From: Gammaproteobacteria bacterium
Lineage (GTDB): Bacteria; Pseudomonadota; Gammaproteobacteria; J044
Direction: 5' to 3'
Length of the DNA stretch: 15,574 nucleotides
NCBI GenBank assembly: GCA_026995955.1
Contig: JALWNJ010000214.1
Location: 1 to 15,574, forward strand
In this document: in pieces, positions 753 through 15,275 of the stretch
Numbering within the stretch: the first letter of the stretch is position 1
How the letters are laid out: each line of letters begins with the position of its first letter
The notes under the pieces: model-generated
What the model was told of the DNA's origin: nothing
The model's input: only the letters and a program-made list of their open reading frames with translations
Database searches by the model: none
Translations under genes and position numbers: made by a program

Positions 753-1685
753 TCAGTCGTTCAGGTGGCGGGGGGCCTCGCCCGCCTTGCTGCCCAGCGC
801 CTGCTCGCGCTCGGCGACGATACGATCGGCGATCTCCTCGATGCTGGTGGTGAGCCACATCCAGGTCTGCGAGCCCTCGCGGTAGTCGGCCGGCCCCATG
901 GAATCGATGCGTTCCTGCTGCTCCAGCGACTTGACCTGCCGGAACTCCTTCTTGTGGCCCGGGTTGTACACGCCGTAGGTGCGCCCGCCCATGCGCCGCA
1001 CCACCGAGAACACCGGCACGTCGGAGGGGCCGTCGGCGATGTAGATCATGTTGCGGAACGGCACGCGGCGCTCGTTCTCGGGAAAGGCGGCATTGACATC
1101 GATTTCCTGCGGATGCTTGTTGACGCCCTTGTTGATCTCGAACACCGCCCGCGTCTTGGTGGTGTTGTCGAGCACATAGGCCACGCGGTGCAGCAGCGGG
1201 CCGTCGGGGGTGTCGCGCTCGATGAACTCGCAGCCCCACACGCCATCCACATGGCGCGCGATGGCGCTGCCGCGGATGGTGCGGGTAAAGCCGGTGCTGA
1301 CGATGTAGTGCTCGAGGGTGATGTCGTGCTTCTGCCACTCGGCCCGCGAGGCAACCAGGGCGCGGGTGGCGGCGAAGAAGTCGGGCAGTCCCGGATAGAA
1401 CTCGAGCTCGCGGCCCAGCTCGGCCAGGATCGCGTTGTTAAGCCCGGCGAAGCGCCCCTGTTCGGTGTACTCGAGCACATGGTTGAGATAGGCCATCTCG
1501 TTGGAGACCTGCTCGCAGCCCATCTCGCGGTATTGCCGGTCGAGCGCGTTGACCTCCTGCCAGAAGGCCTGCTCGTCCACGCCGTAGCGTTCGAACAGCG
1601 GCCGCTGCATGTAGCCCGGGATGAGGGTCTTGTCGAAGTCCCACACCAGGGCGATGACGGTCTGGGTGAACACCGGCGCGTTCAT
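753..1685 (-). CDS. HAD-superfamily phosphatase encoded between parE and parC
   Basis: This 310-residue protein is a probable cytosolic phosphatase or phosphotransferase of the haloacid dehalogenase superfamily; the substrate cannot be told from sequence. Motif I is VWDFDKTL with nucleophile D16 and acid-base D18, motif II is probably the threonine in IVSTGF, motif III a lysine in the [13 protein letters not shown] region, and motif IV is [13 protein letters not shown] with the acidic DxxxD pair. A long, mostly helical insert (residues about 22-90, rich in aromatic and acidic residues) follows motif I and would be the cap. The start is ATG 1685-1683, overlapping the parE stop as ATGA, so translation is probably coupled to parE. 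The same frame stays open upstream through parE by chance, but nothing there resembles a protein domain. Fold assignment is secure; a link to DNA topology is inferred only from position. Confidence 0.88.
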
Positions 1686-3571
1686 GCCAGAAGCTCCGCG
1701 TGGTCGCCCTTCTGCTCCAGCCAGTGGCGGCGATCGGCGGCGCGCTTGCGCGCCAGCAGCATGTCCATCAGGCGGTAGGTATCGTCGCCCGGCTCCAGCA
1801 CCAGCTGCACCAGGCGGCGGGTCTCCGGCGCCATGGTGGATTCGCGCAACTGCATCGGGTTCATCTCGCCCAGGCCCTTGAAGCGGGTGACCACCACCTT
1901 GCCCTTCTTCTTCTCGGCCTGAATGCGGTTGAGCACGCCCTCCTTCTCGGCCTCGTCCAGGGCATAGAACTTCTCCTTGCCGACATCGATGCGGAACAGC
2001 GGCGGCATGGCGACGAACACATGGCCCTGCTCGACCAGCGGCCGGTAGTGGCGCACGAACAGGGCGCACAGCAGGGTGGCGATGTGCAGACCGTCGGAGT
2101 CGGCGTCGGCAAGGATGCAGATCTTGCCGTAGCGCAGGCCGGAGAGGTCGTCGGAGCCGGGATCGACGCCAATGGCCACGGAGATGTCGTGGATCTCCTG
2201 CGAGGCCAGGATCTGGTCGGAATCCACCTCCCAGGTGTTCAGGATCTTGCCGCGCAGCGGCATGATGGCCTGGAACTCGCGATCGCGCGCCTGCTTGGCG
2301 GACCCGCCGGCCGAGTCCCCCTCCACCAGGAACAGCTCGGTGCGCGACAGGTCGGTGGAGGAACAGTCGGCCAGCTTGCCGGGCAGGGCCGGCCCCTGCG
2401 ACACCTTCTTGCGCGCCACCTTGCGCCCCTGGCGCATGCGCCGCTGGGCATTGCTGATGGCCAGTTGCGCCAGCTGCTCGCCCACCGCCGGGTGCTGGTT
2501 GAGCCACAGGCTGAAGGCATCCTTGACCACGCCGGAGACGAACGGCGCCGCCTCGCGCGAGGACAGGCGCTCCTTGGTCTGGCCGGCGAACTGCGGGTCC
2601 TGCAGCTTGGCCGAGAGCACATAGCTGATCTTCTCCCACACGTCCTCGGGGCTGAGCTTCACCCCGCGCGGCAGCAGGTTGCGAAACTCGCAGAACTCGC
2701 GGATGGCCTCGGTGAGCCCGGCACGCAGGCCGTTGACATGCGTGCCGCCCTGCGGCGTGGGGATCAGGTTGACATAGCTCTCGGCCACCGGCTCGCCGCC
2801 CTCCGGCAGCCAGATCACGGCCCAGTCCACGGCCTCGGTCTCGCCCTGCATGCTGCCCATGAAGGGCTCGTCGGGCAGCGTCTCCCAGCCCTTGACCGCC
2901 TCCATCAGATAGTCGCGCAGGCCCTGCTCGTAGTGCCAGGTCTCGGTCTTGCCGCTGACCTCGTCGGTGAAGCTGACGGTGAGCCCCGGACACAGCACCG
3001 CCTTGGCCCGCAATACATGCCGCAGTTTGGGCACCGAGAAGCGCACCGAGTCGAAGTACTGCGCATCGGGCCAGAAACAGACCCGGGTGCCGGTGTTGCG
3101 GCGCCCCACCTCGCCCACCGCCTCCAGCTCCCCGACCTTCTCGCCGTTGGCGAAGGCCATGCGCCAGAGCCGGCCGTCGCGGCGGATCTCCACCTCGAGC
3201 CGTTTCGACAGGGCATTGACCACCGACACCCCCACCCCGTGCAGGCCGCCGGAGAAGCGGTAGTTCTTGTCCGAGAACTTGCCGCCGGCGTGCAGCGTGG
3301 TGAGGATCACCTCCACCCCCGGGCGCTTCTTTTGCGGATGCAGGTCCACCGGCATGCCGCGGCCGTCGTCGGTCACGCACAGCGAGCCGTCGCGGCGCAG
3401 CACCACATCGATGCGGCTGGCATGCCCGGCGATGGCCTCGTCCACGCTGTTGTCGATCACCTCCTGGGCGAGGTGGTTGGGGCGCGTGGTGTCGGTGTAC
3501 ATCCCGGGCCGCTTGCGCACCGGGTCCAGACCGGTGAGGACCTCGATGTCCGAGGCGTTGTAGTCGCTCAT
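1682..3571 (-). CDS. parE: DNA topoisomerase IV subunit B (ATPase)
   Basis: ParE supplies ATP-driven strand passage for topoisomerase IV. The 629 residues match the usual gammaproteobacterial length (E. coli about 630). The GHKL ATPase domain shows QEVIDNSVDEA with the probable catalytic base E37 and magnesium ligand N41, the VTDDGRGMPVD loop at 66-76, and the ATP lid GGLHGVGVSVVNALS from 108. The transducer domain follows. The TOPRIM domain begins with FLVEGDSAGGSAKQARDR near residue 413 and has ILADADSDGLHI near 489. The C-terminal RFKGLGEMNP motif is present. ATG 3571-3569 is chosen because MSDYNASDIEVL aligns with known ParE starts and an AGGAG lies 12 bases upstream. The frame continues open to 3835, but that extension has no ParE homology. 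It is first in the operon and overlaps the next gene by four bases. Confidence 0.98.
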   Translation of the reverse strand: MSDYNASDIEVLTGLDPVRKRPGMYTDTTRPNHLAQEVIDNSVDEAIAGHASRIDVVLRRDGSLCVTDDGRGMPVDLHPQKKRPGVEVILTTLHAGGKFSDKNYRFSGGLHGVGVSVVNALSKRLEVEIRRDGRLWRMAFANGEKVGELEAVGEVGRRNTGTRVCFWPDAQYFDSVRFSVPKLRHVLRAKAVLCPGLTVSFTDEVSGKTETWHYEQGLRDYLMEAVKGWETLPDEPFMGSMQGETEAVDWAVIWLPEGGEPVAESYVNLIPTPQGGTHVNGLRAGLTEAIREFCEFRNLLPRGVKLSPEDVWEKISYVLSAKLQDPQFAGQTKERLSSREAAPFVSGVVKDAFSLWLNQHPAVGEQLAQLAISNAQRRMRQGRKVARKKVSQGPALPGKLADCSSTDLSRTELFLVEGDSAGGSAKQARDREFQAIMPLRGKILNTWEVDSDQILASQEIHDISVAIGVDPGSDDLSGLRYGKICILADADSDGLHIATLLCALFVRHYRPLVEQGHVFVAMPPLFRIDVGKEKFYALDEAEKEGVLNRIQAEKKKGKVVVTRFKGLGEMNPMQLRESTMAPETRRLVQLVLEPGDDTYRLMDMLLARKRAADRRHWLEQKGDHAELLA

Positions 3572-3628
3572 GGGCGGAAGGGACTCCTGGGGGTGGCAGA
3601 CCCCATATCCTGTGGTCGATGGCGCCCG

Positions 3629-3658
3629 AAGATACCGGATGTGGGGCCATGGTGACAA
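3629..3658 (-). promoter_or_regulatory. Possible sigma-70 promoter for the parE operon
   Basis: Read on the minus strand, TTGTCA (3658-3653, five of six matches to the -35 consensus) is followed after 18 bases by TATCTT (3634-3629, four of six matches to the -10 consensus). Transcription would start about 50 bases before the parE ATG. It is the best match I found in the interval, but the -10 is imperfect and the spacer slightly long. Confidence 0.35.
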
Positions 3659-3712
3659 GCAAGCCCGGCTACGGCCGTTTTCCCCACTACTTGCACGGTT
3701 TGCCGAATCCTC

Positions 3713-3739
3713 TAAAGTATGGACGAAAACGGCCGTTAT
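3713..3739 (+). promoter_or_regulatory. Sigma-28 (FliA) flagellar-class promoter of the taxis cassette
   Basis: TAAAGTAT (3713-3720), then exactly 11 bases, then GCCGTTAT (3732-3739). The established FliA consensus is TAAAGTTT, N11, GCCGATAA, so the match is 7 of 8 at -35 and 6 of 8 at -10 with ideal spacing. FliA drives chemoreceptor and late flagellar genes, which fits the genes downstream. Transcription would start near 3746, giving a leader of about 130 bases. An overlapping weaker sigma-70-like pair (TTGCAC with TAAAGT, 16-base spacer) is also possible. Confidence 0.8.
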
Positions 3740-3832
3740 CCCGGGCAGAGACCACGGCCGACGCACCCGCGGGGCATCGGGCCGATGCCGAAAAGACGGG
3801 CAAACGCTGCAACACGAGGATCGTGCACGAAC

Positions 3833-3853
3833 CACCGGTCCGCCGGACCGGTG
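3833..3853 (+). promoter_or_regulatory. Perfect hairpin in the leader, just before the ribosome binding site
   Basis: CACCGGTCC (3833-3841), loop GCC, GGACCGGTG (3845-3853) form a perfect 9-base-pair stem. It ends 12 bases before the GGAGG Shine-Dalgarno sequence of the first PAS gene. There is no following T-run, so it is not a standard terminator. It could stabilise the message or tune translation, or, as a DNA palindrome, bind a regulator. The role is inferred. Confidence 0.4.
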
Positions 3854-3876
3854 CAGGGAGACAGCGGAGGAACAGA

Positions 3877-4404
3877 ATGAAAAACCGGGTCACGCCCACC
3901 CAGCGGGAGATTGCCCTTGGCGAGCAGGACTTCATCGTCTCGAAGACCGACCTCAAGGGCCGTATCACCTACGCCAACCGCATCTTCATGAACATCAGTG
4001 GCTACAGCGAGCCGGAACTGCTCGGCCGGCAGCACAACATCCTGCGCCATCCCGACATGCCGCGCGCCATCTTCAAGCTGCTGTGGGACTACATCCAGGC
4101 CGGGCGCGAATGCTTTGCCTACACCAAGAACCTGTGCAAGAACGGCGACCATTACTGGGTACTCGCCAATGTGACACCGGACCGCGACGAGGGCGGGAAC
4201 ATCAGCGGCTACTTCTCGGTGCGGCGCAGGCCACGCGATGAGGCCATTCGCTATTTCAGCGACCTCTATGCCCGCATGCTGGATGCGGAACGCCGCGCCG
4301 GCCCGCGCGAGGCCATCGCCGCCTCCACCGCGCTGCTCGAAGACGAAATCAGCCAGAAGGGGTTCAAGGACTATGAAACGTTTGTACTTGCAGACGCGCT
4401 ATAA
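3877..4404 (+). CDS. Aer/CetB-like cytoplasmic PAS protein (first copy), probable FAD redox sensor
   Basis: A single-PAS-domain protein of 175 residues with no membrane segment. It aligns without gaps, as I recall the sequence, to the PAS domain of the E. coli aerotaxis receptor Aer: [21 protein letters not shown], then [14 protein letters not shown], then [12 protein letters not shown] and [10 protein letters not shown]. Aer residues needed for FAD binding, N34, R57, H58 and D60, are at identical positions; the fourth, W79, is C79 here. A helical tail (about 120-175) follows and could contact the receptor. The start has GGAGG seven bases-plus upstream. The gene overlaps the receptor gene by 32 bases. 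The expected role is to sense redox or electron-transport state and pass it to the neighbouring receptor, as in Campylobacter CetB and CetC. FAD binding is inferred. Confidence 0.9.
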
Positions 4405-5824
4405 CCTGATCATTGCCCTGCTCGTGCTCTACAGCCTGCTGATCGCGGGGCTGGGCGCACTGGGCATCGACCCGCTCTGGCAAGGCGTGGTGGCGCTGGC
4501 CGCGCTGGCCACCGGACTGCTGGCCTGGTGGGTCATGCGCATGCCGTTCCGGGTCATCAACAACATCCGCACCCTGCTCGGGGAGATGCGCCAGGGCCGC
4601 TACACCTCGCGCATCACCCGGGTGCCCTGGATGGGAGAGGCCGGGCACCTGGCCTGGGATCTGAACGAGGTGCTGGACCAGCTCGAGACTTTCTTCCGCG
4701 AAGTTTGTACAAGCTTCGAACTGGTTTCCCAGGGCAGGTTCTACCGCCGTACCCTGCCGCAGGGCCTGCCGGGCCATATGGCCCGCACCCTCGAGCGAAT
4801 CAACGAATCATTGGAGGCGATGGCACAAAATGCCCTCTACATCCGCGAGAACGAAATGGCCTCGCAGCTGCAGCAGCTCAACACCAGCCAGATCATGAAC
4901 AACTTGACGCTCACCCAAAACGATCTGATGCGCATCACCGACGAGATGGAAAAGGTCTCCGGCATCGCCCTGGACACCATGCAGAAGGCCAACGAGAGCG
5001 AGCACAGCGTGAGCGAGGTGGTGAGCGCACAAAACCAGACCCTGCAGCTCATCCAGCAGGGCAACGAGACCATGTCCCAGCTCAAGGCCATGAGTTCCGA
5101 GATCACCCAGGTGCTGGGGATGATCACGGAGATCGCCGACAAGACCAACCTGCTGGCCCTCAATGCCTCCATCGAGGCCGCCCGCGCCGGCGAGCACGGT
5201 CGCGGCTTTGCGGTGGTAGCCGACGAGGTCAAGCAGTTGGCCGAGAGCACCAAGCAGGCCACCGAGGAGATCCGCGAAGTAGTGAGCACCTTCGAGCGCG
5301 AGACCGGCACCATGCTCGACAACTCCAACCGCATGATGGAGATGGCCGATCACGTGCAGCAGGTGGTCACCGACATGAGCCGCCAGTTCAACGAGTTCGC
5401 GACCCAGTCGCGCGAGACCCACCGCTCGGTGGACTACGCCCATGACATCTGCTTCGCCTCGCTGGTGAAGGTCGACCACATGATCTACAAGCAGCGCGCC
5501 TACAAGGTATTCTACGGAGGCACAGATACCCCCGATGCCGAGGCCGTGCGGGTCGACCATCACAGCTGCCGGCTGGGCAAGTGGTACTACGAGGGCATCG
5601 GCAAGCAGCAGTTCGCCGGCCTTTCCTGCTATCGGCAGCTCGAGGGGCCGCATGCCGAGGTGCACGAAGCCGGGCGCACCGCCCTTGCTTACCTGCAAGA
5701 GGACTGGAAACAGGACGAGGCGCTGCAGCAGAAGATCCTCGACGCCTACCGGCAGATGGAAGAGGCCAGCGAGCGGGTCATGGAAGTCATCGACTGCATG
5801 GTGCCGGAAAAGCACGGCCACTGA
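4373..5824 (+). CDS. Methyl-accepting chemotaxis protein with no periplasmic domain and a C-terminal CZB domain (CetA-like)
   Basis: A 483-residue chemoreceptor. Two closely spaced hydrophobic segments (about 12-32 and 36-55) are joined by only three or four residues, so there is no periplasmic sensor. One or two HAMP-like segments follow (about 56-150, including [14 protein letters not shown] and [16 protein letters not shown]). The signalling hairpin is unmistakable: [20 protein letters not shown] from E253, then [19 protein letters not shown], the tip that binds CheA and CheW. The C-terminus is a CZB zinc-binding domain: H369 in [21 protein letters not shown] with C399, and PHAEVH with H427 and H431, giving a three-His one-Cys set. 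The start ATG 4373 lies inside the preceding gene behind AAGG. With no extracellular input, its signal probably comes from the adjacent PAS proteins and from zinc or oxidant at CZB. Confidence 0.93.
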
Positions 5825-5853
5825 TCACCCACCGAACCGCAACCGGACACGAC

Positions 5854-6372
5854 ATGAAGAACCGCGTCACCCCCACGAATCACGAGGTCCGGCTCGAGGC
5901 CGACCACTTCATCGTCTCCAAGACCGATCTCAAGGGTCGCATCACCTATGCCAACCGCGTGTTCATGCACATCAGCGGCTACCGCGAACCGGAACTGCTC
6001 GGCGCGCAGCACAACATCATTCGCCACCCGGACATGCCACGCGGCGTCTTCCTGCTGCTGTGGAAGATGATCCAAAACGGCGAGGAATGCTTCGCCTATG
6101 TCAAGAACCTGTGCAAGAACGGCGACTACTACTGGGTGTTCGCCAATGTCACCGTGGACCATGACCCGTCCGGCCAGCCCAGCGGCTACTTCTCGGTACG
6201 CCGCCAGCCCCGCCAGGCCGCCATCGATGCGGTGACCCCGCTGTACCAGGAGATGCTGCGCATCGAACGCGAGGCCGGCCCCCGCGATGCCCCGCAGCGC
6301 TCGCTGGACTGGCTGCAGGCGCAGCTTGCGGAAATGAACAAGGACTACAACGAGTTCGTGCTGTCGCTCTGA
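5854..6372 (+). CDS. Aer/CetB-like cytoplasmic PAS protein (second copy)
   Basis: This 172-residue paralogue of the first PAS protein is identical at about 90 of the first 120 residues by hand count and much less similar in the helical tail. It has the same MKNRVTPT start, [17 protein letters not shown] strand, N34, R57, H58 and D60 of the Aer FAD site, and again C79 where Aer has W79. The divergent tails (about 120-172) suggest different contacts with the receptor or with each other, while sensing chemistry is shared. It starts 29 bases after the receptor stop, with no strong Shine-Dalgarno sequence, so it probably relies on the same transcript. Its last 28 bases overlap the end of the convergent gene on the other strand. 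Order and size recall Campylobacter cetC-cetA-cetB. Confidence 0.9.
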   Translation: MKNRVTPTNHEVRLEADHFIVSKTDLKGRITYANRVFMHISGYREPELLGAQHNIIRHPDMPRGVFLLLWKMIQNGEECFAYVKNLCKNGDYYWVFANVTVDHDPSGQPSGYFSVRRQPRQAAIDAVTPLYQEMLRIEREAGPRDAPQRSLDWLQAQLAEMNKDYNEFVLSL

Positions 6373-6911: not shown

Positions 6912-7003
6912 GGCAGTCCATCCTCCCTGAACAGTAAGTTATCCTGCCCATGGATCTTGCCACAGGTGGCCGCAAAGGCGTAAGGGCAGTAGACTTTGGC
7001 ACC

Positions 7004-9604
7004 ATGACCCAGGCCCCCTCCAAGCGCAGCACCGACCGCCATACGCCAATGATGCAGCAGTATCTGGCGATCAAGGCGGAGCACCCGGACATCCTGCTGT
7101 TCTACCGCATGGGGGACTTCTACGAGCTGTTCTACGACGATGCCCGACGGGCTGCGGAACTGCTCGACATCACCCTCACCCAGCGCGGCCAGTCGGCGGG
7201 CGAGCCGATTCCCATGGCCGGCGTACCGGTGCACGCGGTGGAGAACTACCTGGGGCGGCTGGTGCGCATGGGCGAGTCGGTGGCAATCTGCGAGCAGATC
7301 GGCGATCCGGCCGCCAGCAAGGGGCCGGTGGAGCGCAGGGTGGTGCGCATCGTCACCCCGGGCACGCTGACCGAGGAGGCCCTGCTCGACGAGCGCCGCG
7401 AGAACCTGCTGGCGGCGCTGGCCAGCCAGGCCGGTCGACATGCCCTGGCGCTGCTGGAACTCTCCACCGGCCGCTTCACGGCGCTGGAGGTGGCCGGTGA
7501 CGAGGCCCTGCAGGCGGAGCTGGAGCGCCTGCAGCCGGCCGAGCTGCTGATCGAGGAATCGGCGCCAAGCCCACCCGGTTTCGACGAGGCGCGCCTGCAG
7601 CGGCGCCCGCCCTGGCACTTCGACAGTGCCTCGGCGCGCGAATTGCTGCTGGGCCAGTTCGGCACCCGCGACCTGGCGGGCTTCGGCATCGAGGACCGGC
7701 CCGGCATCATAGCCGCTGCCGGCGCGCTGCTGCAGTACGCGCGCGACACCCAGCGCGGCGCCCTGCCCCACATCGACGGCCTGCAACTGGAACAGCAGGA
7801 CGAGGCGGTGATCCTCGACGCCTGGAGCCGGCGCAACCTGGAGCTGGAGCGCAATCTGCAGGGCGGCGAGGAACACACCCTGGTGTCGGTGCTGGACACC
7901 ACGCGCACGCCGATGGGCGGGCGCCTGCTGCGGCGCTGGATCCACCGCCCGCTGCGCCGTCGCGCGCCGCTGGTGGAACGGCTGGACGCCATCGAGGCGC
8001 TGCAGCAGGGTGGCCGTCTGGAGGCCATCCGTGAGCTGCTGCGCCCGGTGGGCGACATGGAGCGCATCCTCACCCGCATCGTGCTGCGCTCGGCCCGCCC
8101 GCGCGACCTCAAGGCGCTGGGCGTGTCGCTGGCGCAGCTGCCGCTGCTGCAGGCGGAGCTGGCCATGCACGAGGCGCCGCTGCTGCGCCGTTGCGCCGAG
8201 GAGATGGCGGAGTTCCCGCAGCTTGCCGAACTGCTGCAAGGGGCCCTGGTGGAGAATCCGCCGGCGGTGATCCGCGACGGCGGCGTCATCGCCGCCGGCT
8301 ACGACGCCGAACTGGACGAGCTGCGCGCCCTGTCGCAACACGCCGACGGCTTCCTCGAGGAACTGGAGCAGCGCGAGCGGGCACGCACCGGCATCGACAG
8401 GCTGAAGGTGGCCTACAACCGGGTACACGGCTACTACATCGAGGTGTCGCGCGCCCATGCCGACAAGCTGCCGCCGGAGTACCAGCGGCGGCAGACGCTG
8501 AAGAACGCCGAGCGCTACATCACGCCGGAGCTGAAGGCCTTCGAGGACAAGGTGCTGTCGGCCCGCGAGCGCGCCCTGGCCCGCGAAAAGGCGCTCTACG
8601 AGGGCCTGCTGGACACGCTCAGCGAATGGCAGGCACCGCTGCGGCGCAGCGCCCAGGCCCTGGGCCGACTCGACCTGCTGGCGACCCTGGCGGAACGCGG
8701 CCTGGCGCTCGACTACTGCCGGCCGGAGCTGGTGGACGAGGCACGGGTGGAGATCGAGGGTGGCCGTCACCCGGTGGTGGAACGGGTACTGGACGAACCC
8801 TTCGTACCCAACGATGCCCGCCTCGACGACCGCCAGCGGATGCTCATCGTCACCGGACCCAACATGGGCGGCAAGTCCACCTGGATGCGGCAGACCGCGC
8901 TCATCGTGCTGCTGGCGCGCATCGGCAGCCCGGTGCCGGCCAGCCGCGCCGTGGTCGGCGACATCGACCGCATCTTCACCCGCATCGGCGCCGCCGACGA
9001 CCTGGCCTCCGGCCGTTCCACCTTCATGGTGGAGATGACCGAGACCGCCAACATCCTCAACAACGCCACCGACCGCAGCCTGGTGCTGATGGACGAGATC
9101 GGCCGCGGCACCTCCACCTTCGACGGCCTGTCGCTGGCCTGGGCCTGTGCCGAACACCTGGCCAGCCGCAACCGGTCACTGTGCCTGTTCGCCACCCACT
9201 ACTTCGAGCTCACCGCCCTGCCGGAGCAACTGCCCGGCGTGCACAACGTGCACATCGACGCCATCAAGCACGGCGAGAAGATCGTCTTCCTGCACGCTGT
9301 CAAGCCGGGACCGGCGAGTCAGAGCTACGGGCTGGAGGTGGCACGCCTGGCCGGCGTGCCGAAGCGCGTCATCGAACGCGCCCGCCGCCACCTGCGGCGG
9401 CTGGAGGAACAGGGAGCCGCCGACAGTGGGCCGCAACTCGGCCTGTTCGCGCCAGAAGGCGCCAGCGACGCCTCCGCAACGGAGCCGGATGCGCCGCACC
9501 CCGTCCTCGAACGCCTGCGGGACACGGACCCGGACCGGCTCACGCCGCGCCAGGCGCTCGATCTGCTGTACGAACTGAAAGAGACGATCGACGATGGAGC
9601 CTGA
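7004..9604 (+). CDS. mutS: DNA mismatch repair protein MutS
   Basis: MutS recognises mismatches and small loops and recruits MutL. The 866 residues compare with 853 in E. coli. The N-terminal mismatch-binding domain carries [16 protein letters not shown] and [11 protein letters not shown], where F39 and E41 are the stacking Phe and Glu of the FYE motif. The core and clamp follow ([12 protein letters not shown] near residue 470), then the ABC-type ATPase: Walker [15 protein letters not shown] from 617, [14 protein letters not shown], and Walker [19 protein letters not shown] from 693. A C-terminal tetramerisation-type tail ([17 protein letters not shown]) is present. The frame opens at 6950, but ATG 7004 is chosen because only from here does it align with known MutS. 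Neither start has a good Shine-Dalgarno sequence, so the start is less certain than the identity. The stop overlaps tpm. Confidence 0.97.
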
Positions 9605-10879: not shown

Positions 10880-10908
10880 CGGACAGGCGACCGGCCATGC
10901 TCTATAAT
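10880..10908 (+). promoter_or_regulatory. Probable sigma-70 promoter for yrbG and the kds-lpt operon
   Basis: CGGACA (10880-10885, four of six) and a perfect TATAAT (10903-10908) are separated by 17 bases. Transcription would start near 10915, only about 18 bases before the yrbG ATG at 10933. Because the -10 lies inside the reading frame that opens at 10897, this also argues for the downstream yrbG start. Confidence 0.7.
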
Positions 10909-10932
10909 TGCCCGCTCGTTCCCGGAGCCACC

Positions 10933-11928
10933 ATGTCACTCGCACTTTCCCTGCTAGCCATCGTCGCCGGACTCGCCCTGCTGGTATGGGGGGCCGACCG
11001 CTTCGTGCTCGGCGCCGCCAGCCTGGCGCGGACCCTGGGCGTGTCGCCGCTGGTCATCGGTATCACGGTGGTGGGCTTCGGCACCTCGGCGCCGGAGCTG
11101 CTCATCTCCACCATCGCCGCGCTGGAGGGCACGCCCCAGCTCGCGGTGGGCAACGCCATCGGCTCCAACATCGCCAACATCGCCCTGATCCTCGGCGTCA
11201 CCGCGCTCATCACCCCGCTGGCCGTGCATTCGAAGACCCTGCGCCACGAGTTCCCGCTGCTGCTGGGCGTGTCGCTGCTGACCTGGTGGCTGCTGGCCGA
11301 CGGCACCCTGGGCCGGATCGACGGACTGCTCCTGCTGGTCCTGCTGCTGCTGGTCATGATCTGGCTGGTGTGGGACGCACTGCGTGCACGGCCCGACGAT
11401 CCCCTCAGCCAGGAACTGGTGGCCGAGCTGGAGCAGGACCTGCCGCCCACGATGAGCACCGGCCGTGCCCTCATGTGGTTCCTGATCGGCCTGGTGGTGC
11501 TGGTCGCCAGCTCGCGCATGCTGGTCTGGGGCGCTGTCAACATCGCTCATGCCCTGGGGGTGAGCGACCTGGTCATCGGTCTGACCATCGTCGCCCTCGG
11601 CACCAGCCTGCCGGAACTGGCCGCCTCCATCGTCAGCGCCCGTCGCGGCGAGGCCGACCTGGCGCTGGGCAACGTGCTCGGTTCCAACCTGTTCAACACC
11701 CTGGGGGTGCTGGGCCTGCCGGGGCTGATCCACCCGGCCGTGCTGGAGGCGGGCGTCCTCGACCGCGACCTGCCGGTGATGCTGGCACTGACGGTGCTGC
11801 TGTTCGCCATGGCCTATGGCTTCCGCGGCCCGGGACGCATCAACCGCTGGGAGGGCGGTTTTCTGCTAGCCTGTTTTGCAGGCTATCAGTGGTACATCTA
11901 CCAGAGCATCCAGACCACCGCGACATGA
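10933..11928 (+). CDS. yrbG: Calcium/sodium antiporter family inner-membrane protein
   Basis: A 331-residue membrane protein of the Ca2+/cation antiporter (CaCA) superfamily, close in length to E. coli YrbG (about 325). The two inverted halves that define the family are visible: first alpha repeat GFGTSAPELLISTIAAL followed by AVGNAIGSNIANIALILG, second alpha repeat ALGTSLPELAASIVSA followed by ALGNVLGSNLFNTLGVLG. The two glutamates in TSAPE and TSLPE are the expected ion ligands. A hydrophilic acidic loop (about 150-175, ARPDDPLSQELVAELEQDL) joins the halves. About ten hydrophobic helices can be counted. The start ATG 10933 follows GGAG; upstream codons would include the promoter. The gene begins the kds-lpt operon, as in E. 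coli, though no role in lipopolysaccharide is established for it. Confidence 0.93.
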   Translation: MSLALSLLAIVAGLALLVWGADRFVLGAASLARTLGVSPLVIGITVVGFGTSAPELLISTIAALEGTPQLAVGNAIGSNIANIALILGVTALITPLAVHSKTLRHEFPLLLGVSLLTWWLLADGTLGRIDGLLLLVLLLLVMIWLVWDALRARPDDPLSQELVAELEQDLPPTMSTGRALMWFLIGLVVLVASSRMLVWGAVNIAHALGVSDLVIGLTIVALGTSLPELAASIVSARRGEADLALGNVLGSNLFNTLGVLGLPGLIHPAVLEAGVLDRDLPVMLALTVLLFAMAYGFRGPGRINRWEGGFLLACFAGYQWYIYQSIQTTAT

Positions 11929-12905
11929 ACGACGGACATGCCGACAAGCTGAAGGCCCTGGGCCGGGCAGTGGTGGAGACCGAGCGTGCGGCCGTGGACG
12001 CCCTGCTGCCCCGCATCGACGACGACTTCGTGCGCGCCTGCGACCTGTGCCTGGCCTGTCGTGGCCGCATCGTGGTCACCGGCATGGGCAAGTCGGGCCA
12101 CATCGGCAGCAAGATCGCCGCAACCCTGGCCAGCACCGGCTCGCCGGCCTTCTTCGTCCACCCGGGCGAGGCCAGCCATGGCGACCTGGGCATGATCACC
12201 GCCGAGGACGTGGTCATCGCCATTTCCAACTCGGGCGAGACCGAGGAGCTGCTGACCATCGTCCCCATCATCCGCCGTCTCGGCGTGCCGCTGATCGCCA
12301 TGACCGGCAACCCGGCCTCCAGCCTGGCGCGCGAGGCGGAAGTGAATCTCGACATCAGCGTGGAGAAGGAGGCCTGCCCGCTGGGGCTGGCGCCCACGGC
12401 CTCCACCACCGCCACCCTGGTGATGGGCGATGCCCTGGCCGTGGCGCTGCTGGAAGCGCGCGGCTTCACCGCCGACGACTTCGCCCGCTCGCACCCGGGG
12501 GGGCGACTGGGCCGGCGCCTGCTGCTGCATGTCGCCGACATCATGCGTCGTGACGAGCAGCTGCCCAGGGTCGGCCCCGAGACCCGGCTCGACCAGGCCC
12601 TGCTGGAGATCTCGCGCAAGGGCCTGGGCATGACCGCCATCGTCGACGAACAGAACCGCGTGATCGGCGTCTATACCGACGGCGACCTGCGGCGCAGCCT
12701 GGACCAGCGCATCGACATCCACGAAACCGAGGTGGGCCAGGTCATGACCCACCCCTGCCGCACCGCACGCCCCGACATGCTGGCGGTGGAGGCGCTGAAG
12801 CTGATGGAGGACCACCGCATCAACGCCCTGCCGGTGGTGGACGAAGAAGGGCGCATGATCGGCGCCCTCAACATGCACGACCTGCTGCGCGCGGGCGTGG
12901 TCTGA
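11925..12905 (+). CDS. kdsD: D-arabinose 5-phosphate isomerase
   Basis: KdsD converts ribulose 5-phosphate to arabinose 5-phosphate, the first dedicated step to Kdo, the inner-core sugar of lipopolysaccharide. The 326 residues (E. coli 328) comprise a sugar-isomerase SIS domain and two CBS domains. In SIS, GMGKSGHIGSKIAATLASTG has K56 (E. coli K59), ISNSGETEELL binds phosphate, and SHPGGRLGRRLL has H190 (E. coli catalytic H193). The CBS pair begins near HVADIMRRDEQLPRV and includes VIGVYTDGDLRR and VMTHPCRTARP, ending IGALNMHDLLRAGVV. The ATG at 11925 overlaps the yrbG stop as ATGA, so translation is coupled. kdsC follows after 13 bases. Confidence 0.97.
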   Translation: MNDGHADKLKALGRAVVETERAAVDALLPRIDDDFVRACDLCLACRGRIVVTGMGKSGHIGSKIAATLASTGSPAFFVHPGEASHGDLGMITAEDVVIAISNSGETEELLTIVPIIRRLGVPLIAMTGNPASSLAREAEVNLDISVEKEACPLGLAPTASTTATLVMGDALAVALLEARGFTADDFARSHPGGRLGRRLLLHVADIMRRDEQLPRVGPETRLDQALLEISRKGLGMTAIVDEQNRVIGVYTDGDLRRSLDQRIDIHETEVGQVMTHPCRTARPDMLAVEALKLMEDHRINALPVVDEEGRMIGALNMHDLLRAGVV

Positions 12906-12918
12906 ACGGAGCGAGACG

Positions 12919-13443
12919 ATGCAGGACATCCTCGAAAAGGCGCGCGACATCCGCATGGTGATCTTCGATGTCGATGGCGTGCTCACCGACGGCAGTCTGT
13001 TCGTGGGCGACGACGGCCAGGAATACAAGGCCTTCAACTCGAAGGACGGGCACGGCATGCGCATGCTGCAGGAGGCCGGCGTGGAGATCGCCATCCTCAC
13101 CGGCCGCACCTCAAATGTAGTGCGCCTGCGCATGGAGGAACTGGGCATCGAGCGGGTGATGCAGGGCCACCGCGCCAAGCTGCCGGCCTTCGAGGCCCTG
13201 CTGGCGGACAGCGGCCTGGCCCCGGAGCAGATCGCCTATGTCGGTGACGATGTGGTCGATCTACCGGTGATGACCCGGGTGGGACTGGCCATCGGCGTGG
13301 CCGACGCCCATCCGCTGGTCAAGCGCCATGCCCACTGGCTCACCGGCAGCCCTGGCGGGCGCGGGGCGGCGCGCGAGGTCTGCGAGCTGATCCTGGAGGC
13401 CCGCGGCGAGCTCGACGCGCTGCTGGCGCGCTACCTGCAATGA
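12919..13443 (+). CDS. kdsC: 3-deoxy-D-manno-octulosonate 8-phosphate phosphatase
   Basis: KdsC removes phosphate from Kdo 8-phosphate to give Kdo. The 174-residue protein is a C0-type HAD phosphatase that forms tetramers in known cases. Motif I VIFDVDGVLTDG has nucleophile D17 and acid-base D19, motif II is ILTGRTS, motif III the lysine in GHRAKLPAFEALL, and motif IV YVGDDVVDLPVM. The glycine-rich C-terminal tail GGRGAAREVCELIL, which reaches the neighbouring subunit's active site in the family, is intact. It is shorter than E. coli KdsC (about 188) mainly at the N-terminus. CGGAG lies eight bases before the start. The stop overlaps the lptC start by four bases. Confidence 0.97.
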   Translation: MQDILEKARDIRMVIFDVDGVLTDGSLFVGDDGQEYKAFNSKDGHGMRMLQEAGVEIAILTGRTSNVVRLRMEELGIERVMQGHRAKLPAFEALLADSGLAPEQIAYVGDDVVDLPVMTRVGLAIGVADAHPLVKRHAHWLTGSPGGRGAAREVCELILEARGELDALLARYLQ

Positions 13444-14000
13444 GGCTGCGCGGCCTGCTGGGCCTGCTGCTGGTGCTGGCCGTGGCGGCCTTCAGCTGGT
13501 GGGTGCAGCAGTTGTCCCGGGAACTGGAGCAGCGGCCGGACCGGCGGCACCAGGAGCGTGTGGACTACTACCTGGAGGGCTTCAGCGTGCTGGCCACCGA
13601 TGCCGGCGGCACGCCGCGCTATCGGCTCGACGGGCGGCGTCTGGAGCACCGCGTGCCCTCCGACACCGCCACCATGAGCGACCCGGTGCTGCGCTGGTAT
13701 CCCGACGCGGGTCCCGAGGTGACCCTGCGCGCAGAGCGCGCCGAGGGCAGCCCGGGCGGCGAGGAGGTGCTGCTGGCCGGCGAGGTGACCCTGAACCGCC
13801 CCGCCTGGCAGGATCAGGACCGCGTCGATGCGCGCACCCGCAACCTGCGCGTGCGCCCGGCCCAGCGCACCGCGCACACCCCGGAACCGGCCCAGGCCGA
13901 GGGCGAGCGCTATCGCATCCGGGGCCGCGGGCTCGCGCTCGACCTGAATCGCGGTACACTCACGCTGGAACACGAGGTACGCGGAACCCATGCGCCCTGA
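13440..14000 (+). CDS. lptC: Lipopolysaccharide export protein LptC
   Basis: LptC is the bitopic inner-membrane part of the Lpt machine that receives lipopolysaccharide from LptB2FG and passes it to LptA. The 186 residues (E. coli 191) have one N-terminal hydrophobic helix (about 4-24, GLLGLLLVLAVAAFSWWVQQL) and a periplasmic beta-rich domain with YYLEGFSVLATDAGGTPRYRL and repeated strands such as VLLAGEVTLNRP and VDARTRNLRV. Sequence conservation in this family is low, so the call leans on the membrane topology, the YxLxxxxxxxxDxxGxxxYxL pattern and the position between kdsC and lptA. A segment at about 140-155 (QRTAHTPEPAQAEGE) looks like a loop insertion. Start overlaps kdsC as ATGA, end overlaps lptA by 11 bases. 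Confidence 0.9.
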   Translation: MRLRGLLGLLLVLAVAAFSWWVQQLSRELEQRPDRRHQERVDYYLEGFSVLATDAGGTPRYRLDGRRLEHRVPSDTATMSDPVLRWYPDAGPEVTLRAERAEGSPGGEEVLLAGEVTLNRPAWQDQDRVDARTRNLRVRPAQRTAHTPEPAQAEGERYRIRGRGLALDLNRGTLTLEHEVRGTHAP

Positions 14001-14553
14001 TGCCCTCAAGCAGCTTCTCCTGTTCCTGCCCCTGCTGGCCCTGCTCGCGCCCGGGACCCTGCCTGCCCTGAGCAGCGACCGCGAGCAGCCCGTACACATC
14101 GAGGCCGACCGTCTGGTGATCGACGAACCCAAGGGCACCATGACCTACAGCGGCCATGCCCGGCTCACCCAGGGCAGCATCGTCCTGGAGGCGGATCGCG
14201 TGGTGCTCTACAGCCACCAGCGGCGTCTGACCCGGGCCGAGGCCAGCGGCAACCCGGTGCGCTTCCGCCAGAAGACCGACGACGGCCATCTGATCCGCGC
14301 CCGCGCCCGGCGCATGGAATACGAGGTGGCCACGCGTCTTCTGCGGCTGCGCGGCGAGGCCGAGCTGTGGCAGGACGAGAATCACATCCGCAGCCCCCGC
14401 ATCGACTACGACATGGCCAGCAACCGGGTCGAGGCCCGGGGCAGGCCCGGCACCGACGCCCCCCCGGGCAGCAAGCCGGGACGGGTCGAGATCATCCTGC
14501 AGCCGGAGACGGTGTCCGACCACCAAAGCGGCGATGGGGACCCGCCACGGTGA
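13990..14553 (+). CDS. lptA: Lipopolysaccharide transport periplasmic protein LptA
   Basis: LptA forms the periplasmic bridge carrying lipopolysaccharide from LptC to LptD. The 187 residues (E. coli 185) start with a Sec signal peptide ([20 protein letters not shown], probable cleavage around 25-29). The beta-jellyroll domain shows the family pattern [20 protein letters not shown], then [21 protein letters not shown], repeated as [21 protein letters not shown] and [21 protein letters not shown]. The C-terminal tail is polar ([21 protein letters not shown]). It starts 11 bases before the lptC stop, and its own TGA is contained in the GTGA that starts lptB. Confidence 0.95.
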
Positions 14554-15275
14554 AGACCCTGCGTGCCAGCAATCTGGTCAAGCGCTATCGCCGCCGCACG
14601 GTGCTCGACGGCGTCTCCATCGAGGTGCGCCAGGGCGAGGTGGTGGGCCTGCTGGGACCCAACGGCGCCGGCAAGACCACCAGCTTCTACATGATCGTGG
14701 GCCTGGTCCCGCCCGACGAGGGCGAGATCTGGCTCGACCGCCAGGAGATCACCGACTTCCCCATGCATGCCCGCGCGCGCATGGGCGTGGGTTACCTGCC
14801 GCAGGAGGCCTCGGTGTTCCGCAAGCTCAGCGTGGCCGACAACCTGCGTGCCGTGCTCGAGCTGCGCGAGGACCTCGATGCGCAGGGCCGCGAGCAGGCC
14901 CTGCAGGCGCTGCTCGACGAGTTCCAGATCGACCACATCCGGGACAACCTGGGCATCAGCCTGTCCGGCGGTGAGCGGCGGCGGGTGGAGATCGCCCGCG
15001 CGGTGGCCTCGGAGCCGGCCTTCATGCTGCTCGACGAGCCCTTCGCCGGTGTCGATCCGATCTCGGTGCTGGACATCCAGCGCATCATCACGCATCTCAC
15101 CGAACGCGGCATCGGCGTGCTCATTACCGACCACAACGTGCGCGAGACCCTGAGCATCTGCGCGCGCGGCTACATCCTCAGCGATGGAAAGGTCCTGGCC
15201 GAAGGCCCGCCCGAGGCGATCCTCGCCGACCAGCGCGTGCGCGAGGTCTATCTGGGGCGGGAATTCAGCCTGTGA
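14550..15275 (+). CDS. lptB: Lipopolysaccharide export ATP-binding protein LptB
   Basis: LptB is the cytoplasmic ATPase dimer that powers lipopolysaccharide extraction through LptF and LptG. With the GTG start at 14550 it has 241 residues, the same as E. coli LptB. ABC motifs run in order: Walker [17 protein letters not shown]-loop [14 protein letters not shown], signature [14 protein letters not shown], Walker [17 protein letters not shown] and switch histidine in [11 protein letters not shown]. The C-terminus, LGREFSL, is typical of the family. The GTG overlaps the lptA stop as GTGA with GGGGA a little upstream. The frame is open further left to 14367, but that part only shadows lptA. LptF and LptG are usually encoded elsewhere and are not in this window. 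Confidence 0.97.

What the first reader, a model, noticed from the sequence alone, without database searches (positions are those of the whole stretch)
3713..6372. CetABC-like split energy-taxis cassette (PAS, receptor, PAS) in a gammaproteobacterium
Two stand-alone Aer-type PAS proteins (175 and 172 residues) flank one membrane chemoreceptor (483 residues) that has no periplasmic domain. In Campylobacter jejuni, as I recall, cetC-cetA-cetB have the same order, similar sizes and the same split of Aer into separate sensor and transducer. Unlike my memory of CetA, this receptor also carries a CZB zinc-binding domain. Seen: domains, order, overlaps. Known: Aer and Cet biology. Inferred: that these three proteins form one complex sensing redox or energy state.
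Basis: partly seen in the sequence, partly recalled or inferred. Interest (0 to 1): 0.75.

Follow-up and report, generated by a model that had tools for sequence, protein, structure and literature searches.

The report
Split redox receptor with zinc domain
These three bacterial genes look like a navigation sensor made of two flavin-type sensor proteins and one membrane receptor with a zinc-binding tail, a receptor type of which a known Campylobacter sensor looks like a worn-down member.

Summary
PAS1 (3877-4404), a membrane chemoreceptor with a C-terminal CZB domain (4373-5824) and PAS2 (5854-6372) lie head to tail behind a flagellar sigma-28-type promoter at 3713-3739 (1 match in the window, 0.01 expected). 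PAS2 matches E. coli Aer's PAS best in the PDB, and both PAS proteins carry all 8 FAD-contact residues reported for CetB2.

The surveys change the interpretation. The conserved unit is PAS followed by receptor, usually with CZB among the loci closest to PAS2, in Gammaproteobacteria and Campylobacterales. The trio is rare: seen intact in the window's genome and two others (G466, G263) and inferred in a fourth. It arose by PAS duplication inside Gammaproteobacteria, probably twice.

CZB does not set this receptor apart from CetA by origin. The zinc site is intact in 57 of 66 aligned receptors, and proteins named CetA in Campylobacter keep a decayed CZB by profile comparison; Pfam and structure search did not see it.

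Best reading: a CetBA-type energy-taxis receptor with two redox inputs, flavin and zinc. FAD, zinc, protein contacts and taxis are untested.

The parts
3713..3739 (+). sigma-28 (FliA)-type promoter, TAAAGTAT-n11-GCCGTTAT
   Evidence: 3 mismatches to TAAAGTTT-n11-GCCGATAA, only match in the window, 0.01 expected; consensus as printed in PMC2859248; boxes scoring 13 or more of 16 upstream in 10 of 24 relatives scanned; FliA gene in the genome
3877..4404 (+). PAS1, stand-alone Aer-type PAS protein, 175 aa (upstream copy, CetB/CetC-like)
   Evidence: Pfam PAS 54 bits; 8 of 8 CetB2 FAD-contact residues identical
4373..5824 (+). membrane chemoreceptor, 483 aa, CetA-like with C-terminal CZB
   Evidence: Pfam MCPsignal and CZB; homologues; tree
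4394..4543 (+). two membrane helices in a hairpin (residues 8-57), no periplasmic domain
   Evidence: hydropathy
4544..4702 (+). HAMP-like segment (residues 58-110), presumed PAS docking site
   Evidence: position and conserved columns in A1; no Pfam HAMP match; inferred
5042..5428 (+). MCP signalling domain (residues 224-352)
   Evidence: PF00015, 115.9 bits
5477..5686 (+). CZB zinc-binding domain (residues 369-438); ligands H369, C399, H427, H431
5854..6372 (+). PAS2, stand-alone Aer-type PAS protein, 172 aa (downstream copy)
   Evidence: best PDB match E. coli Aer PAS 8dik, E 8.1e-30; 8 of 8 FAD-contact residues

Best explanation
This is a split energy-taxis receptor of the CetBA kind with an intact-looking CZB domain and a duplicated PAS sensor. 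Shown by sequence: the genes, domains, order, FAD-contact residues, zinc-ligand residues, promoter box, and the conservation of the PAS-receptor pair. Inferred: PAS1 and PAS2 each bind FAD, report the redox state of the respiratory chain, and dock on the HAMP region of the receptor dimer; the CZB reports labile zinc or oxidants; because the receptor's long hairpin folds back, the CZB should sit at the membrane-near end close to the docked PAS proteins, so that both redox signals converge on one CheA-controlling receptor; the genes are made together with the flagella under FliA. The two PAS copies probably compete for, or share, the same receptor, with the upstream copy the more dispensable one.
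For: Aer is the best PDB match for PAS2. All 8 CetB2 FAD-contact residues listed in PMC12442639 are in both window PAS proteins, and 65 of 69 PAS proteins collected keep at least 6 of the 8. A search with PAS2 alone, blind to CZB, was made in 369 genomes of the class; of the loci it laid, 26 with stand-alone-type PAS frames were read: 25 have a receptor gene next to them (one, L295, only as a short frame cut by the contig end, 12 bits), and of the 23 whose receptor end can be read 20 carry CZB (in G036 on a separate frame). In the best 30 Campylobacterales loci from the same query, 28 have the receptor next to the PAS and all 27 uncut ones match the CZB profile. Zinc ligands are intact in 57 of 66 aligned receptors. 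The promoter box is in the window and in 10 of 24 relatives scanned. CheA and FliA are in the genome. CetB2-CetA2 of Magnetospirillum is an interacting FAD pair with overlapping genes and an aerotaxis phenotype (PMC12442639).
Against: I found no biochemistry or phenotype for a split receptor with CZB. The HAMP is below Pfam's reach. CZB is not universal: absent in 3 of 23 gammaproteobacterial loci, and among 12 PAS loci of five Campylobacterales genomes reached through named loci it was clear beside 3, weak beside 1, absent beside 5, and 3 had no receptor detected. So PAS signalling does not need CZB. Nothing shows that both PAS proteins use this receptor; the genome also holds long frames matching both PAS2 and the receptor. 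14 of 24 relatives scanned have no convincing promoter box.
Confidence: 0.72

Rival explanations
1. The zinc tail is the real sensor and the PAS proteins only tune receptor stability or adaptation; the receptor works like Salmonella McpA or H. pylori TlpD, steering by zinc or oxidants.
For: CZB ligands are invariant in the 31 sequences of A1. A 2026 preprint reports McpA's CZB driving attraction to O2 and oxidants through zinc (PMC13370339, abstract and discussion read).
Against: The PAS gene stands next to the receptor in nearly all loci read, and 65 of 69 PAS proteins keep at least 6 of 8 FAD-contact residues, while zinc ligands have been lost several times with a PAS gene retained (6 changes on the tree).
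Confidence: 0.15
2. A true three-protein CetC-CetA-CetB system shared by descent with Campylobacter.
For: Same order and similar make-up as described for C. jejuni (PMC3558505, passages read).
Against: PAS1 and PAS2 split inside Gammaproteobacteria (clades 99/95 and 98/93); the downstream PAS is missing in most relatives read; C. [quoted passage not shown] Named CetB and CetC were not obtained for the tree.
Confidence: 0.05
3. One PAS copy is a decaying duplicate without function.
For: The upstream PAS is a 57-62 aa remnant in G349 and G520 and absent upstream of the receptor in G002.
Against: In the window both copies keep all 8 FAD-contact residues, and the two copies have stayed distinct since before the window's family and the genus of G466 split.
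Confidence: 0.15

Closest known systems
CetB2-CetA2 of Magnetospirillum gryphiswaldense (Herz et al. 2025, PMC12442639; abstract and sections 6, 7, 10, 11 read)
   Same: PAS gene overlapping the receptor gene; soluble FAD-PAS protein; membrane receptor without sensor domain; all 8 FAD-contact residues shared
   Different: the parts read report no CZB for CetA2 and one PAS gene in the pair; its sequence was not compared here
CetA, CetB, CetC of Campylobacter jejuni (PMC2628428, PMC3558505; passages read)
   Same: order PAS-receptor-PAS, split of Aer, second PAS able to replace the first
   Different: named CetA proteins of C. upsaliensis and C. vulpis keep only a decayed CZB by profile comparison; cetAB is reported independent of the flagellar regulon; trio not of common origin on present evidence. 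C. jejuni CetA itself was not obtained
Aer of Escherichia coli
   Same: best PDB match of PAS2; aer has a sigma-28 promoter (PMC2859248, start of abstract and passages)
   Different: PAS, membrane anchor and signalling domain in one chain; no CZB (recalled)
CZB receptors TlpD and McpA; membrane-bound CZB chemoreceptors of the 2021 census (PMC8262984, 12 of 20 matched places seen)
   Same: C-terminal CZB with 3His/1Cys
   Different: no partner PAS protein is mentioned in the passages seen, nor a link to CetA-type receptors

Membership tests
bipartite (CetBA-type) energy-taxis receptor | separate Aer-type PAS protein with FAD-contact residues | tested here: met
   (8 of 8 in both)
bipartite (CetBA-type) energy-taxis receptor | membrane receptor with helical hairpin, no periplasmic domain, MCP signalling domain | tested here: met
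bipartite (CetBA-type) energy-taxis receptor | HAMP domain with the nine conserved residues of Elliott et al. 2009 | not testable with these tools
   paper not held; Pfam HAMP gives no match
bipartite (CetBA-type) energy-taxis receptor | genes adjacent and conserved as a pair | tested here: met
bipartite (CetBA-type) energy-taxis receptor | receptor groups with named CetA | tested here: inconclusive
   29.6% identity over 389 columns to P0242, E 1.4e-52; same tree but without an outgroup of other receptors
bipartite (CetBA-type) energy-taxis receptor | bound FAD, PAS-receptor interaction, energy-taxis phenotype | not testable with these tools
   needs bench work
CetABC of Campylobacter | PAS-receptor-PAS order | tested here: met
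CetABC of Campylobacter | common origin of the two PAS genes | tested here: inconclusive
   PAS1/PAS2 split inside Gammaproteobacteria, but no protein named CetB or CetC was in the 120 listed
CetABC of Campylobacter | transcription independent of the flagellar regulon | tested here: inconclusive
   sigma-28-type box at 3713-3739 points the other way; no transcript data
CZB domain | Pfam cut-off and 3His/1Cys ligands | tested here: met
   62.2 bits, cut-off 29.4; H369 C399 H427 H431
CZB domain | zinc bound | not testable with these tools
   needs metal analysis

The most novel reading that the evidence does not exclude
Split energy-taxis receptors were built from the start, or early, as two-input redox sensors, with flavin PAS proteins docked from outside and a zinc CZB in the receptor's tail, and the CetA on which the field's picture of the system rests is a derived receptor whose zinc sensor has decayed. 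The two redox readings would be integrated at one membrane-near site.
Probability: 0.4. Interest if true: 0.75.

Novelty: new variant of a known kind. Interest (0 to 1): 0.5.

Why it matters
Flavin PAS receptors and CZB receptors have been studied as separate routes to sensing oxygen and redox state. Here both sit in one receptor system: 20 of 23 readable gammaproteobacterial loci and 27 of 27 of the closest Campylobacterales loci, fewer in more distant ones. That makes it possible to ask with single-gene mutants how a cell combines two redox readings, and it suggests re-reading the C-terminus of Campylobacter CetA, where Pfam assigns no domain, as a decayed zinc sensor.

Tried and rejected
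Elliott et al. 2009, the paper that defines the HAMP/PAS-pair family, is not held, so its nine HAMP residues were not tested and whether it mentions C-terminal domains is unknown.

In the control, 12 of the 19 intended control tails turned out to be CZB tails: all 12 show a C-x2-G-x-W motif, 11 an H-x3-H motif and 10 a D/E-H match, that of L045 doubtful. Only 7 true controls remain. They scored 8.5-18.8 against 40-62 for the 12 CetA-type tails.

First PAS tree (69 rows) had two rows mislabelled (L121 is the G349 downstream PAS; L123 held two genes under one name). One search corrected this and left out six long-branch rows (L134, L136, L138, L139, L154, L156). The clade of window-type PAS1 with the f151 genes (family of G263) has 93/90 support, so an older single duplication followed by loss and re-duplication in f151 is not excluded. 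The receptor tree left out rows of 420 aa or less and one copy of the window's own receptor.

One search, meant to bring named CetB or CetC, listed none among its best 120.

The receptors were found in part with a profile that includes CZB and so favours CZB; many of the 36 genomes match only over the last two thirds of the receptor and were not read as cassettes. The unbiased counts are those and 88/90, though these favour PAS genes close to PAS2. In one search, 17 further rows with open frames under 400 aa had no locus of their own and were not read there (one, G102, was read as L138), and 4 laid loci with long frames (573-1056 aa) were left out.

Full report
What is there. The window is one whole contig (C214) of a draft genome of 443 contigs, 86% complete; its family has three genomes in the held set. 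That it is a gammaproteobacterium is inferred from close homologues named so (P0005, 87% identical, and Candidatus Thiodiazotropha). On the plus strand lie PAS1 (3877-4404, 175 aa), a receptor (4373-5824, 483 aa) and PAS2 (5854-6372, 172 aa), with a 32-base overlap and a 29-base gap. The receptor has a two-helix membrane hairpin at residues 8-57, an MCP signalling domain and a CZB domain. Pfam sees no HAMP, but the segment after the helices is strongly conserved in 31 aligned sequences, as are the four CZB ligands H369, C399, H427 and H431.

Promoter. Against the sigma-28 consensus TAAAGTTT-n11-GCCGATAA (printed in PMC2859248, passages read) it has 3 mismatches. It is the only such match in the window, with 0.01 expected. 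Of 25 upstream regions scanned (24 loci, as L216 and L248 are the same gene), 10 hold a box with a score of 13 or more out of 16 that none of 60 base shuffles reached; the others do not. These regions were cut at frame starts, so some may be misplaced. The genome has a FliA gene (265.9 bits, cut-off 189.6) and CheA. E. coli aer is also transcribed by sigma-28 (PMC2859248, start of abstract), while C. jejuni cetAB is reported independent of the flagellar regulon (PMC2628428, abstract passage).

PAS proteins. The best solved relative of PAS2 is the PAS domain of E. coli Aer (8dik, E 8.1e-30). Herz et al. 2025 (PMC12442639, abstract and sections 6, 7, 10, 11 read) list eight FAD contacts in CetB2; all eight residues are identical at the same spacing in PAS1 and PAS2. 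Of 69 PAS proteins collected, the window's two included, 35 have all 8, 22 have 7, 8 have 6, and 4 have 4 or fewer. PAS1 and PAS2 are 65% identical to each other.

Which genes stay together. A class-wide search with the receptor profile gave 36 of 369 genomes at E<=1e-60, some of them matching only over the last two thirds; 25 loci were read (L118-L142). A PAS gene or its remnant stands directly upstream in 22 of 25; the others are two at contig edges (L119, L141) and L120 (G002), which has none in the 4.7 kb read upstream. A search with PAS2 alone, which cannot favour CZB, found 66 of 369 genomes at E<=1e-30, many of them matches inside long fused proteins. Of 26 laid loci with stand-alone-type PAS frames, 25 have a receptor gene beside them (L295 only as a cut frame of 68 aa, 12 bits), and L306 has none. 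In 23 the receptor can be read far enough, and 20 carry CZB (in G036, L011/L140, on a separate frame); L296, L301 and L302 do not. In Campylobacterales 73 of 80 genomes had PAS matches at E<=1e-20. Of the best 30 loci, 28 show the receptor adjacent, and all 27 not cut by a contig end match the CZB profile, some weakly. In five Campylobacterales genomes reached through named loci the picture is more mixed: of 12 PAS loci, CZB is clear beside 3 (L151, L153, L160), weak beside L156, absent beside 5 (L152, L157, L161, L166, L175), and 3 show no receptor.

The trio is rare. Same-strand PAS pairs about 2 kb apart on one contig, both at E<=1e-30, appear in 2 of 369 genomes of the class (window, G263), with G001 carrying both PAS types on two contigs that end within the cassette. 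In the family of G349, 1 of 96 genomes has it (G466). None of 20 Campylobacterales loci read past the receptor has a second PAS behind it. In G349 and G520 the upstream PAS is a remnant of 57 and 62 residues, in G002 it is missing, and the receptor with the downstream PAS remains (in G002 the receptor and PAS2 lie on two contig ends). In the tree of 64 PAS proteins, window PAS1, G001 and G466 upstream copies form one clade (99/95), and the downstream copies of six genomes another (98/93). The G263 pair groups with the PAS genes of its own family (100/99). So one duplication is older than the split between the window's family and G466's genus, and the G263 pair is most simply a second one. The bootstrap had not fully settled.

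CZB and CetA. In 66 aligned receptors 57 have all four zinc ligands. Proteins called CetA by NCBI in Campylobacter vulpis and C. upsaliensis (P0204, P0242) show no CZB in the Pfam rows listed at E<=10. A profile of 57 CZB sequences nevertheless aligns over 112 columns to the end of a profile of 20 CetA-type receptors (HHalign probability 97.7, E 1.8e-12). Taken one by one, 12 CetA-type tails score 40-62, against 8.5-18.8 for the 7 usable control tails without CZB and 66-232 for 12 tails with CZB. In the named CetA proteins the first His is kept, the Cys and the other two His are gone. On a tree built without the CZB columns, eight CetA-type receptors with lost ligands form one clade (SH-aLRT 100) inside a clade of 30 Campylobacterales receptors (99), 19 of them with intact ligands; six changes explain all 14 rows with lost ligands among 69. 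The root is a midpoint, and one row without any CZB (L150, Rhodocyclaceae) lies at the base on a long branch, so whether the very first split receptor had CZB stays open. Structure comparison was not informative here.

How it probably works. By analogy with CetB2-CetA2, where FAD binding, PAS-receptor contact and an oxygen response were shown (PMC12442639), the PAS proteins read the redox state of the cell through FAD and pass it to the HAMP region. The CZB is the domain by which TlpD responds to HOCl (PMC8262984, passages) and by which Salmonella McpA is proposed to follow oxygen and oxidants through zinc availability (PMC13370339, preprint, abstract and discussion). Because chemoreceptor hairpins fold back towards the membrane (general knowledge), the tail CZB should lie near the HAMP region and the docked PAS proteins. 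This placement and any crosstalk are inference.

Is it known. Split PAS/receptor pairs are an established kind; Elliott and DiRita mention 55 pairs (PMC2628428, passages). CZB on membrane receptors is also known (PMC8262984). In the held library the whole words CetA and CZB occur together in one paper, PMC9665402, which gives CZB to another receptor, Tlp6; a second search (CZB, bipartite, PAS domain, chemoreceptor; 33 papers, 15 listed) showed no paper that joins them in its title or in the abstract starts shown. Elliott et al. 2009 could not be read. So the cassette is a new variant of a known kind, and the more general point, that split energy receptors often carry CZB and that CetA has a decayed one, was not found in print by these searches.

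Noticed in passing
L244 (G349) 2932-3102 and L243 (G520) 2388-2573: Remnant of the upstream PAS gene (57 and 62 residues around the FAD motif) just before the receptor in two species of one genus.
   Followed up: partly
L256 (G553): A lone PAS gene of this type with no receptor detected within the 6 kb read, although G554 and G263 of the same genus have a receptor beside it.
   Followed up: no
L138 and L139 (G102, G317): Gammaproteobacterial receptors beside divergent PAS genes whose CZB ligands are lost, apparently independent of the CetA loss; their PAS proteins keep only 2 and 1 of the 8 FAD-contact residues.
   Followed up: partly
G409:C22:148251-149299, G419:C1:1382261-1383269, G385:C62:2780-4163, G459:C135:2985-4291: Pairs of stand-alone PAS genes directly next to each other in Campylobacterales.
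   Followed up: no
L140 (G036) 1498-3824: Receptor split over two reading frames, with a PAS gene upstream, in a one-contig genome.
   Followed up: no
G000:C183 and G000:C124: Own genome also has long frames (721 and 585 aa) that match both PAS2 and the receptor, probably fused Aer-type receptors.
   Followed up: no
window 6950-9604, 10897-15275 (+); 1682-3570 (-): Neighbours are housekeeping-type genes by my reading of the ORF list (mutS-like, kdsD/kdsC and lptC-lptA-lptB-like, topoisomerase IV-like on the minus strand), not chemotaxis genes; names recalled, not searched.
   Followed up: no
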